From the IMG/VR virus record IMGVR_UViG_3300035698_013747, positions 1-21,903 of that record: a stretch of 21,903 nt of DNA; one strand, written 5' to 3'. This stretch comes from a virus. Below are positions 1-15,844 of the stretch, piece after piece. The notes beneath the pieces are model-generated. The model had not been told where the DNA came from, did no database searches, and saw only the letters and a program-made list of their open reading frames with translations. Positions within the stretch are counted from its first letter, which is position 1, and every line of letters begins with the position of its first letter. A program made the position numbers and the translations under genes.

Positions 1-37
1 AGAGTAGGAATATCTAGCAGCGTAAATGATTATAGAG

Positions 38-151
38 TCAAAAGCTGGGTGAGTGTTCATAAGATTCTAGAGGATTGGTGTCGTACTGATCGAGGTGTTC
101 CATAAGACTAACCCTTGGAAGCTCTCCCTGTGTTAATTCATATATTGTCAT
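38..151 (-). CDS. Possible 37-residue ORF downstream of tnpB
   Basis: An ATG-started frame of 37 codons ends in TGA. It begins with MTIYELTQGELPRV and is acidic with no membrane segment. It lies 46 bp after the tnpB stop on the same strand. Both the second full copy of the tnpB 3' repeat (95-114) and its shortened copy (53-64) fall inside it, where they encode SLMEH and SYEH. It could be a real small phage gene, or a chance frame over an RNA-coding or transposon-end region. No Shine-Dalgarno sequence precedes it and I do not recognise the peptide. Confidence 0.35.
   Translation of the reverse strand: MTIYELTQGELPRVSLMEHLDQYDTNPLESYEHSPSF
95..114. repeat. 20-bp direct repeat, second copy
   Basis: This is an exact copy of the 20 bases at 185-204. 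Read on the minus strand, each copy ends in TCTTATGGAACAC and is followed by a different sequence. Unlike the copy at tnpB, no comparable hairpin precedes this one. Confidence 0.9.
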
Positions 152-184
152 GTTTTCTTAGGTTCAAGTTTAAGGACCGTGTTC

Positions 185-204
185 GTGTTCCATAAGACTA
201 ACCC
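185..204. repeat. 20-bp direct repeat, copy overlapping the tnpB stop
   Basis: The sequence gtgttccataagactaaccc covers the tnpB stop codon (198-200). The same 20 bases recur at 95-114, exactly 90 bp away, and a shortened version (gtgttcataaga) lies at 53-64. The repeat abuts a hairpin inside the tnpB 3' end, with arms ccgaga (203-208) and tctcgg (215-220). Confidence 0.9.
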
Positions 205-330
205 GAGAAACTAATCTCGGTGCTTACTTCCTGCTTCATAGATAGTAATACATCCCTATCTCCACAGGCTTGAATTCCGGTAGAACCTACCGTATGTAAA
301 TGTTTTAGATTCATAGCAGCATTTAGATCT
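185..330 (-). ncRNA. Candidate omega-RNA scaffold at the tnpB 3' end
   Basis: In IS200/IS605-type elements the guide RNA scaffold (omega-RNA) overlaps the tnpB 3' end and runs to the right end of the element, followed by the guide. Here the last codons hold a 6-bp hairpin with a 6-nt loop (203-220), followed at once by the repeated motif TCTTATGGAACAC. The sequence after the motif, below about 184, would be the guide. The upstream boundary is a guess, I cannot compute the full fold, and no transcript evidence exists here. Confidence 0.3.
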
Positions 331-1361
331 CTGTCTAGAGAAAAGCTACATGAAAAACATGTAAACATTCTCTGACTAAGATCTAGAGACTCCCCCACTA
401 CACCACAGTTAGAACATTTCTTAGTAGAGGGAAAATACTTGTCTGCTATAACAATCTCTCTCCCATACCACCTAGCCTTGTATTCTATCATACCTCTAAA
501 CATACCAAAGCTAGCATCTCTGAGATTTCTATTTAGAGATTTTCCCATATCCCCAAACTTCAAATCTTCTAAGACTATAACTTGGTTCTCGCGTATAATC
601 TTAGTAGTAGCCTTATGTAAGGCATCTTTTCTGATGTTACTGATTCTATAATGTGTTTTTGCTATCTTCTTTCTTGATCTTTCTCTGTTTCTACTCCCTT
701 TCTGTTTTCTTGAATGTTGTCTTTGAACTCTTTTGAGTTTCTTTAGATTTCTTCTCAGGGCTTTAGGGTTCTTAAAATACTCCCTATTCGAGGTAATAGC
801 TAAATGTTTGATCCCCAGGTCTACTCCGACTACATTGGTATTCTTAGGAAGTTCTTCAATCTCTTCCTCTACTATACAAGAAACAAACCACCTATCTGCT
901 CTACCTGAGATAGTAGCAGAGATAATTCTCTTAGAGAGGTCAAGATAATTCTTCTCTTTGATTCTCACTAGACCAATGTTTGGGATCTTGATATGAGTAT
1001 TAGTTAACCAGGTACACCCCTGTAACCAGTAAGACTGTCTTGACCTATGTTTAGATTTAAAGTTAGGAAATTTACATCTCTTCTTGAAATAGTCTTTGAA
1101 GGCATCTCTACAATTAGTGAAAGCTCTATTAAGTGAACATGCAGAAACCTCATACAGCCATTTATACTCCTCTGTTCTTTTGAGCTCTAAGAATTTCTTA
1201 CCTAGATCAACTGAGTAATCCTTAGATTCAAGTTGTTTTTTGTATTCAGATAGATACCAGTTATAGACCCATCTAGCAGATCCCACATGTTTTTTGAACA
1301 TGGTTATCTGCTTTTTGTTAGGCTTGAGTTCTAACAGATAAGATTTATGGGTCTTACTCAT
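198..1361 (-). CDS. tnpB: TnpB (IS200/IS605 OrfB family) RNA-guided DNA nuclease
   Basis: This 387-residue protein has the usual TnpB length and architecture. It has an N-terminal wedge/helix-turn-helix-like region (residues 1-170), then a split RuvC nuclease. RuvC I is GVDLGIKHLAIT with Asp181, RuvC II is VLEDL with Glu265, and RuvC III is DRDLNAAMN with Asp345. A zinc finger uses Cys316, Cys319, Cys335 and Cys338, and the family-typical ACGD lies near the C-terminus. All catalytic and zinc residues are present, so it should be active. TnpB proteins are guided by an omega-RNA made from their own 3' end. The ATG lies 6 bp after the stop of the 132-residue gene, so the two are probably co-transcribed from the promoter at 1814-1842. 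I find no tnpA transposase and no left transposon end next to it, which suggests a solitary or domesticated copy. Confidence 0.95.
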   Translation of the reverse strand: MSKTHKSYLLELKPNKKQITMFKKHVGSARWVYNWYLSEYKKQLESKDYSVDLGKKFLELKRTEEYKWLYEVSACSLNRAFTNCRDAFKDYFKKRCKFPNFKSKHRSRQSYWLQGCTWLTNTHIKIPNIGLVRIKEKNYLDLSKRIISATISGRADRWFVSCIVEEEIEELPKNTNVVGVDLGIKHLAITSNREYFKNPKALRRNLKKLKRVQRQHSRKQKGSRNRERSRKKIAKTHYRISNIRKDALHKATTKIIRENQVIVLEDLKFGDMGKSLNRNLRDASFGMFRGMIEYKARWYGREIVIADKYFPSTKKCSNCGVVGESLDLSQRMFTCFSCSFSLDRDLNAAMNLKHLHTVGSTGIQACGDRDVLLSMKQEVSTEISFSG

Positions 1362-1367
1362 TTTCTC

Positions 1368-1766
1368 TTAATCTAACTCTTCTTCTGGTTGAACCCATCC
1401 TGAGTGTTTAAGAACATCAAAGAAGAATGGCTCATATTCTGGATGGTTCTCGAGGATCTGGGAATGGTCATCACATACTCCGTAAGGGAATCCTTCTACG
1501 TCTTCATCAGGATGATCAAAATATCCTTCTATCTTTGTGAAGAAGGGACGAAGGATATTATCGGAAGACCAATCACAAGTCTCATAGATAGGATAATCCA
1601 CTGACAAACTTCTAAATTCGCCACACCTTAAACCAGAATCTCCAGCTGAGGATAACATATCTGAAATCCTTCTTATATGTGAAGGCACATATTCAGAGTT
1701 GATCCGCAGGATATCAGTAGCTGGGACGTTTTCTATCTGGTCGAGAATAACTAGATTATATAACAT
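1368..1766 (-). CDS. Unknown acidic 132-residue protein, tnpB operon partner
   Basis: I do not recognise this protein. It begins MLYNLVILDQIENVPA, is strongly acidic throughout, and ends in an EEELD tail. It contains four cysteines and several His-Pro-Glu/Asp stretches (DHPDEDVEG near residue 87, NHPEYEPFF near 106). No membrane segment is visible. The ATG follows directly on the leader of promoter copy 1 (the bases before it are TTGTTGTT, with no Shine-Dalgarno). It is the first gene of a two-gene unit with tnpB 6 bp downstream. A role linked to TnpB, for example as a regulator or accessory protein, is only inferred from this position. It could equally be an unrelated early phage protein behind which tnpB landed. 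Confidence 0.8.
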   Translation of the reverse strand: MLYNLVILDQIENVPATDILRINSEYVPSHIRRISDMLSSAGDSGLRCGEFRSLSVDYPIYETCDWSSDNILRPFFTKIEGYFDHPDEDVEGFPYGVCDDHSQILENHPEYEPFFFDVLKHSGWVQPEEELD

Positions 1767-1813
1767 AACAACAATTTTCTAACAACTAACAGCCCTGCCA
1801 TAACAACAAATAA

Positions 1814-1842
1814 ACTATACCTTACATTTGAGTGAAAGTAAA
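1814..1842 (-). promoter_or_regulatory. Sigma70-like promoter, copy 1 (132-aa gene and tnpB)
   Basis: Read on the minus strand there is a -35 box TTTACT (1842-1837), a 17-bp spacer and a -10 box TATAGT (1819-1814). It lies within a longer conserved block that starts CTACTTTACTTTCA. Downstream to 1767 runs a leader, containing GGGCTGTTAGTTGTTAGAAA and ending TTGTTGTT before the ATG, that is nearly identical in copy 3 (13826-13870). The block is shared by three places in the window, which makes the call stronger than a single match would. Confidence 0.78.
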
Positions 1843-1844
1843 GT

Positions 1845-1915
1845 AGAAAAAGGTCAGCTCGTCAAGGAGGTAGGGATGGGGAATCCCGTTGAAGAAACGA
1901 AGCTGACCTTTTTCT
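1845..1915. terminator. 71-nt hairpin, likely bidirectional terminator
   Basis: A perfect 15-bp outer stem pairs 1845-1859 with 1901-1915 (core aaaaaggtcagct with agctgaccttttt). Inside it, cgt pairs with acg, caa with ttg, and gggat (1873-1877) with atccc (1883-1887). T-runs close the stem on both strands, so it can terminate transcription in either direction. On the minus strand it ends just as promoter copy 1 begins, insulating the tnpB unit from the 49-residue gene. The outer loop is unusually large and structured for a plain terminator, and the sizes and loop motifs match its neighbour at 1925-1995. Confidence 0.7.
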
Positions 1916-2165: not shown

Positions 2166-2194
2166 ACTATCGTTTACTTCTGATTAAAAGTAAA
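2166..2194 (-). promoter_or_regulatory. Sigma70-like promoter, copy 2 (49-aa gene)
   Basis: On the minus strand there is TTTACT (2194-2189), a 17-bp spacer and GATAGT (2171-2166), with the same upstream TTTTCTAC as copies 1 and 3. The downstream transcript keeps TTGTTAGGGCTGT and then diverges. It sits between the stop of the 87-residue gene (2215) and the GTG of the 49-residue gene (2133). Confidence 0.72.
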
Positions 2195-2214
2195 GTAGAA
2201 AACATTGAAAAGAA

Positions 2215-13870: not shown

Positions 13871-13899
13871 ACTATGCCTTATATTGGAATGAAAGTAAA
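13871..13899 (-). promoter_or_regulatory. Sigma70-like promoter, copy 3 (replication operon)
   Basis: On the minus strand there is TTTACT (13899-13894), a 17-bp spacer and CATAGT (13876-13871), preceded by TTTTTCTAC. The leader to 13826 (TTGTTAGGGCTGTTAGTTG and then a TTGTTGTT end) matches copy 1 closely. It marks the border between the structural genes, which end at 13913, and the replication genes. Confidence 0.75.
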
Positions 13900-13903
13900 G
13901 TAG

Positions 13904-13923
13904 AAAAAGGAATTATTCTTTTT
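13904..13923 (-). terminator. Weak AT-rich terminator at the end of the structural genes
   Basis: An 8-bp stem with one bulge pairs aaaaag and aa (13904-13912) with tt and cttttt (13916-13923), around a 3-nt loop. On the minus strand it ends in a five-T run and contains the stop codon of the 101-residue gene. It is GC-poor and so probably leaky. It directly precedes promoter copy 3, the same order of hairpin then promoter as at 1845-1915. Confidence 0.4.
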
Positions 13924-15256: not shown

Positions 15257-15844
15257 TTATGAAAGTAGATGTTTGAATCTATCGGTTTTTATATTACTTC
15301 GTAGAAGTTCTATCTCGAATCCTGGATGACTCCGGTAGAAAAAGAAATCCTTGAAGAATGGGAGAAGCTTTAGAGAAACCAATTCAACCTTTTCCTGAGC
15401 TTCTGTTATGAACTTAATATCAAACGAATTTCGATGAACTCGTTTCTGTATTCTAGATAATGCTTCTTCTGGGTCTGTGCTAATAGATACCAGAGTCTTA
15501 TAGTATGGACTAAGAGCAAAATCTTCCATCATCGTCTTATAATAATAAATATTTCTTTTTAATGGTCCAAAATCTATATCTGCTTCAACTAGAAGATTGT
15601 ATCTGTAAGCTCGTGCATATGATAGAGTATCTGAAAGACAACCTAGTGTACTTTCGGGAGCTTCCCATCTATTAGTGAGATCACAAAATCTATCTAATCC
15701 TAACCACACCCAGTTAGGATCTTCTCCTAGTATTTTCTGGATGAGGTGAGACTTACCTGATCCAGTTGTCCCACATACAAATATCAAATGAGGCTTCCCA
15801 ACCGAAGATTTCCCTTCAACTACTTCTTTCAAAATCTTACTCAT
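15257..15844 (-). CDS. P-loop kinase-like protein (zeta/AAA_33 type)
   Basis: This 195-residue protein has one clear Walker A motif, CGTTGSGKS at 24-32, after a strand HLIFV. An Asp (Asp51, in WLGLDRF) sits at the place where zeta-toxin/AAA_33-type kinases hold their catalytic or substrate-binding acid. A later strand (NLLVEADIDF, 83-92) and basic RIQKRVHRNSF (132-142) fit the lid of this fold. The likely reaction is ATP-dependent phosphorylation of a small molecule, nucleotide or polynucleotide end. Its ATG overlaps the stop of the acyl-carrier-like gene by ATGA, which suggests the two work together. The kinase class is a moderate call and the substrate is unknown. Confidence 0.65.
   Translation of the reverse strand: MSKILKEVVEGKSSVGKPHLIFVCGTTGSGKSHLIQKILGEDPNWVWLGLDRFCDLTNRWEAPESTLGCLSDTLSYARAYRYNLLVEADIDFGPLKRNIYYYKTMMEDFALSPYYKTLVSISTDPEEALSRIQKRVHRNSFDIKFITEAQEKVELVSLKLLPFFKDFFFYRSHPGFEIELLRSNIKTDRFKHLLS

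What the first reader, a model, noticed from the sequence alone, without database searches (positions are those of the whole stretch)
1..1842. Intact TnpB adopted into a phage promoter unit, without a transposon around it
TnpB keeps the RuvC residues Asp181, Glu265, Asp345 and its four zinc cysteines. There is no tnpA, no recognisable left end, and only 6 bp between it and the preceding 132-residue gene. That gene follows directly on one of three near-identical phage promoters. Known TnpB proteins serve transposon retention, and some relatives have been turned into regulators or defence nucleases. A solitary active copy in a phage transcription unit could serve interphage competition, homing or host DNA cutting.
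Basis: partly seen in the sequence, partly recalled or inferred. Interest (0 to 1): 0.72.

Follow-up and report, generated by a model that had tools for sequence, protein, structure and literature searches.

The report
Transposase-less RNA-guided nuclease in phage operon
A bacterial virus carries an apparently intact RNA-guided DNA-cutting enzyme (TnpB) together with its guide-RNA scaffold, left over from an IS607-type transposon that lost its transposase, sitting behind a viral promoter where it most likely works as a selfish retention or homing gene; such leftovers are common in phages, so this is a tidy new example and not a new kind of system.

Summary
The gene is real: tnpB (198-1361, minus) has all RuvC and zinc residues and is modelled like solved TnpBs. 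It starts 6 bp after a 132-aa ORF that follows one of three near-identical phage promoters; no tnpA was found. Relatives with that tail often carry an IS607 serine-recombinase TnpA beside tnpB. Microcystis phages show the full element, its empty sites (GGG motif, GG core) and two different tnpA deletions that left tnpB and omegaRNA about 99% intact. About two thirds of the nearest viral records show no adjacent transposase, and five relatives have tnpB abutting an upstream ORF. So this is a tnpA-less, left-end-less IS607-type TnpB, most likely still an RNA-guided nuclease, kept by cutting copies of its site that lack it. Domestication for a phage benefit is not shown. Odd: the core reads AC instead of GG, and an exact 20-bp copy of the tail lies 90 bp downstream. 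The contig ends 197 bp past tnpB and no close relative was found, so its empty site could not be tested.

The parts
1814..1849 (-). phage promoter P3 (CTACTTTACTTT...TATAGT; -35 TTTACT, 17 nt, -10 TATAGT) directly before the 132-aa ORF
   Evidence: function inferred from repetition and sigma-70-like hexamers
2166..2201 (-). second copy of the promoter motif (P2)
13871..13906 (-). third copy of the promoter motif (P1)
1368..1766 (-). 132-aa ORF (g132), acidic, no relative found; occupies the place where tnpA sits in full elements
   Evidence: single-sequence model uninformative
198..1361 (-). tnpB, 387 aa, RuvC D181/E265/D345 and zinc cysteines C316/C319/C335/C338 intact
187..296 (-). omegaRNA scaffold overlapping the tnpB 3' coding end: hairpin CGGTAG/CTACCG, CCTG/CAGG helix, hairpin CCGAGA/TCTCGG, tail GTTAGTCTTATGGAAC
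185..186 (-). position of the IS607 GG crossover core, here AC
165..184 (-). predicted guide GAACACGGTCCTTAAACTTG (boundary inferred from Microcystis phage elements and ISXfa1)
   Evidence: inference and PMC10711439
95..114 (-). exact second copy of the 20-nt tail GGGTTAGTCTTATGGAACAC, without hairpin
38..151 (-). 37-aa ORF that contains the second tail copy; reality as a gene unproven
   Evidence: sequence; tblastn hit only to itself

Best explanation
This is a TnpB plus omegaRNA left from an IS607-type element that lost its serine-recombinase tnpA and its left end and now sits directly behind a phage gene under a phage promoter. The g132-tnpB transcript would give TnpB, and its 3' end (296-187 plus flank) would be the omegaRNA, with the next 16-20 nt as guide. 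The enzyme should cut DNA that has a GGG-type motif followed by that guide sequence, that is, co-infecting or sister genomes that lack tnpB at this site; loss of such copies, or their repair from the tnpB copy, would keep tnpB in the population (retention/homing). Shown: intact protein features, intact scaffold, conserved tail, no tnpA found, promoter sequences. Inferred: expression from P3, cleavage, the guide boundary, homing.
For: Protein residues, family models and fold. Scaffold found by a model trained without the window, E 6.6e-11, with strong covariation in relatives. IS607 TnpA next to tail-bearing relatives (NCBIfam transpos_IS607). Exact element ends, GGG motif and GG core from empty sites in Microcystis phages, agreeing with ISXfa1 (PMC10711439). 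Two different tnpA deletions with tnpB and omegaRNA kept. Five other relatives with tnpB packed onto an upstream ORF. Precedent for TnpB acting as a gene drive against element-free plasmids (PMC11870625).
Against: The core is AC, not GG; [quoted passage not shown] No empty site or relative of this phage was found, so homing is untested here. The IS607 assignment rests on relatives, not on TnpB itself: NCBIfam IS200 and IS607 TnpB models both fall below cut-off and do not discriminate. Codon usage fits the phage but the control shows little power.
Confidence: 0.6

Rival explanations
1. A decaying passenger: an IS607 copy that lost tnpA, left end and GG core, whose ORF is intact only because the loss was recent; no present function.
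For: Lost core, lost tnpA and left end, tail fragment duplicated; PMC11061315 reports that 30% of TnpAs at IS607 loci are pseudo proteins.
Against: All catalytic and zinc residues and all omegaRNA elements upstream of the core are intact at only 39-45% protein identity to relatives, which a long-neutral copy would not keep; the gene lies under a phage promoter.
Confidence: 0.2
2. Domestication for the phage's benefit: TnpB serves competition with other phages, host-DNA cutting or regulation from its own transcription unit.
For: Placement behind P3 and g132 with a 6-bp gap; loss of transposase and GG core; nuclease-dead TnpB relatives (TldR) are known phage regulators (PMC13418256).
Against: Tight packing and missing tnpA are common among relatives; no target outside its own flank was found; RuvC is intact, unlike TldR; g132 has no known partner role.
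Confidence: 0.13
3. The repeated 20-mer is itself the guide and its match at 95-114 is a target: a self-directed regulator.
For: The two copies share GG plus 18 nt, and 95-114 is preceded by a GG/GGG motif.
Against: The sequence aligns position by position with the conserved tail GTAAGTTTnnnnGAACGG of 20 relatives and the model places it in the scaffold; under this reading the scaffold would lack the AAC that is conserved near its end.
Confidence: 0.05

Closest known systems
IS607-family element of Microcystis phage Ma-LMM01 and its tnpA-deleted copies in MaMV-DC and MaMV-CH01/DH01
   Same: TnpB (about 39% identical) with the same omegaRNA architecture and tail in a phage; tnpA loss with tnpB kept
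   Different: those copies keep the left end and GG core and a tnpA remnant; the window copy has none of these and is coupled to a phage gene
ISXfa1 TnpB (IS607; PMC10711439)
   Same: GG core and GGG motif rules used here to predict guide and target
   Different: complete bacterial transposon; core intact; tested experimentally
ISDra2 TnpB and ISFba1 TnpB (solved structures)
   Same: fold and catalytic residues
   Different: ISDra2 is IS605-type; ISFba1 uses a RAGATH-18 RNA outside the coding sequence with AGGAG motif (PMC11061315), here the RNA overlaps the coding end
TldR, nuclease-dead TnpB-like repressors of phages (PMC13418256)
   Same: TnpB-derived, phage-borne, outside a transposon
   Different: RuvC intact here; no partner gene or promoter target seen

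Membership tests
TnpB RNA-guided nuclease | RuvC D-E-D triad and zinc ribbon | tested here: met
   D181, E265, D345, C316, C319, C335, C338 invariant; guided_TnpB cut-off met
TnpB RNA-guided nuclease | omegaRNA at the 3' end of tnpB | tested here: met
   covariance model hit 296-187, E 6.6e-11; covariation
TnpB RNA-guided nuclease | Guided DNA cleavage | not testable with these tools
   needs biochemistry
IS607-type element | Serine-recombinase TnpA next to tnpB | tested here: not met
   none near tnpB; present in ten tail-bearing relatives, so origin, not current membership, is claimed
IS607-type element | GG core at the right end | tested here: not met
   AC after GGAAC; GG in nearly all relatives, GT in L017 and L023
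IS607-type element | Left end upstream of tnpA | tested here: not met
   6 bp between g132 and tnpB; nothing recognisable as a left end seen, but left ends are poorly conserved
Homing gene | Empty site in relatives matching the guide behind a GGG motif | tested here: inconclusive
   no relative of this phage found; shown for the family at Microcystis phage sites
TldR | Inactivated RuvC site | tested here: not met
   triad intact

The most novel reading that the evidence does not exclude
A lineage of phage TnpBs has dropped transposase, left end and GG core and become free-standing RNA-guided homing genes plugged into phage operons; in this copy the duplicated scaffold tail 90 bp downstream, followed by a different flank, would let recombination between the 20-bp repeats swap the guide.
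Probability: 0.1. Interest if true: 0.75.

Novelty: new member of a known kind. Interest (0 to 1): 0.42.

Why it matters
If the homing reading holds, phage TnpBs without transposase would be RNA-guided counterparts of free-standing homing endonucleases, and the Microcystis phage series (full element, two tnpA deletions, empty sites in sister phages) would be a ready system to test how a transposon nuclease outlives its transposase.

Tried and rejected
(1) First idea: the repeated 20-mer is a guide with a neighbouring target. Rejected because it aligns with the conserved scaffold tail. (2) Relatives of this phage: megablast in phage records, TnpB and PolA peptides in viral contigs and a PolA motif pattern: none. 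(4) The 18-mer after the second tail has three viral hits in unrelated GC-rich sequence, taken as chance; the predicted-guide 18-mer has none. (5) Second tail copies in 21 relatives: no exact one. (6) Codon usage as a sign of long residence: tnpB fits the phage, but a third of unrelated TnpBs do too. (7) g132 by AF2 alone: pLDDT 33, no use. (8) Rfam: no match at gathering. (10) Left-end similarity between the 70 nt separating the tail copies and the Ma-LMM01 left end looked suggestive by eye, but left ends are not conserved among relatives, so it was dropped.

Full report
What was checked. The window is a whole virus record of 21,903 bases with no near match among phage records and no PolA relative found in viral contigs. 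All long genes run on the minus strand and include DNA polymerase A, a DnaB-like helicase, a primase zinc finger, a second helicase and tail proteins, so it is a phage of an undersampled lineage.

The protein. tnpB at 198-1361 (-) encodes 387 aa. It meets the NCBIfam guided_TnpB cut-off, aligns along its length to ISDra2 TnpB, keeps D181, E265, D345 and four zinc cysteines invariant among 14 sequences, and its AF2 model (mean pLDDT 80.6) matches ISFba1 and ISDra2 TnpB structures at TM-scores of about 0.7 to 0.9. The last 28 residues are modelled with very low confidence; their DNA also encodes the omegaRNA.

The right end. Comparing 3' ends of relatives showed a conserved architecture: a hairpin, the box AGCCTGTGGAG, a variable hairpin, the box GAAGCAGGAA, another hairpin, and a tail GTAAGTTTnnnnGAACGG. 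In 20 relatives (window excluded) the first hairpin and the CCTG/CAGG helix form standard pairs in 98.9% of cells, against 37-50% when slid, with changes on both sides in 8 of 9 pairs. A covariance model from these finds one strong site in the window, 296-187 minus, 45.6 bits, E 6.6e-11. The omegaRNA scaffold is therefore complete up to GGAAC; the two core positions that follow read AC instead of GG. Folding the strand alone gives the same hairpins, though not more stably than shuffles (z -1.5).

Which transposon. Ten tail-bearing relatives carry an IS607-type serine recombinase directly before or overlapping tnpB, and others have truncated pieces of it. In Microcystis phages the element could be delimited exactly. 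Ma-LMM01 has tnpA and tnpB; sister phages show the empty site TTATTATAGGG|CATTCAAACAG, and in LMM01 the element sits between TAGGG and CATTC, with its right end GAACGG joining CATTC. MaMV-CH01 has it at another site, empty in two relatives as TATTATAGGG|AGTTGCAC. This is the GG core and GGG motif reported for ISXfa1 (PMC10711439). Relative to LMM01, MaMV-DC lacks about 419 bp and CH01 about 368 bp of tnpA, while tnpB and omegaRNA remain about 99% identical. Losing tnpA while keeping the nuclease is thus documented in this family.

How unusual is the window copy? Among the 30 nearest viral records, 8 have a resolvase match (one of them far from tnpB) and 3 a Y1 transposase; the rest have none in the record, though many records are fragments. 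Five other relatives (L010, L011, L012, L017, L055) start tnpB within 20 bp of, or overlapping, an upstream ORF. So neither the absence of tnpA nor the tight packing is special. A core other than GG occurs in three tail-bearing copies (window, L017, L023), none with a tnpA seen (3 of 9 against 0 of 14; Fisher p 0.047; small, hand-picked sample and uncorrected). The tails of L017 and L023 were assigned by eye.

The transcription unit. The promoter motif occurs three times, exact over the specified bases, with none expected in shuffles; the pattern was derived from the sites themselves, so this shows that they repeat, not that they work. P3 lies just before g132; a very stable 70-nt hairpin precedes it. 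That P3 drives tnpB and its omegaRNA is inferred; TnpB is known to process its own mRNA into omegaRNA (PMC10278001, abstract). g132 has no relative in any library searched.

The repeat. GGGTTAGTCTTATGGAACAC at 185-204 (scaffold tail) recurs exactly at 95-114, inside a 37-aa ORF and without the hairpin; sequence outside the 20-mer is unrelated at the 90-bp offset. No relative shows an exact second copy. It may be a scar of another copy's right end. A guide swap by recombination between the repeats is possible but untested, and why it exists remains unexplained.

Mechanism. Most likely TnpB binds the processed 3' RNA and cuts DNA with a GGG-type motif next to the guide, that is, genomes lacking tnpB here, so that repair or biased survival keeps it. 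Protein and scaffold integrity are shown; expression, cutting and homing are inferred. The lost GG core is the main reason for doubt, since the flanking nucleotide matters for ISXfa1 activity. Rivals are a decaying passenger and domestication for the phage's benefit; the evidence excludes neither, but nothing specific supports the latter.

Verdict.

Noticed in passing
window 1845-1915 and 1925-1995: Two very stable ~70-nt hairpins back to back (fold z about -7.9 and -7.4) between a 49-aa membrane-like ORF downstream of P2 and promoter P3; the first ends in a T-run that overlaps the P3 -35 region. Terminators or small structured RNAs.
   Followed up: partly
L020 4182-4355, L029 4197-4367, and in L013, L027, L080, L011, L012: A small ~58-aa gene (VTKTEFETxDGxxHP..FELDE.PT.EEFQ..YD) lies directly upstream of IS607 tnpA in several phage elements, and directly upstream of tnpB in tnpA-less L012; no Pfam family. 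It may be an unrecognised accessory gene of these elements.
   Followed up: partly
window 95-114 and 185-204: Exact 20-bp direct repeat of the omegaRNA tail 90 bp apart, the second copy inside a 37-aa ORF; origin unexplained.
   Followed up: yes
window 15257-15844: 195-aa P-loop protein matching the Zeta toxin and AAA_33 Pfam families, next to tail genes; probably a nucleotide kinase.
   Followed up: no
window gene starts: Most genes of this phage have no clear Shine-Dalgarno sequence (listing), which may hint at the host group.
   Followed up: no
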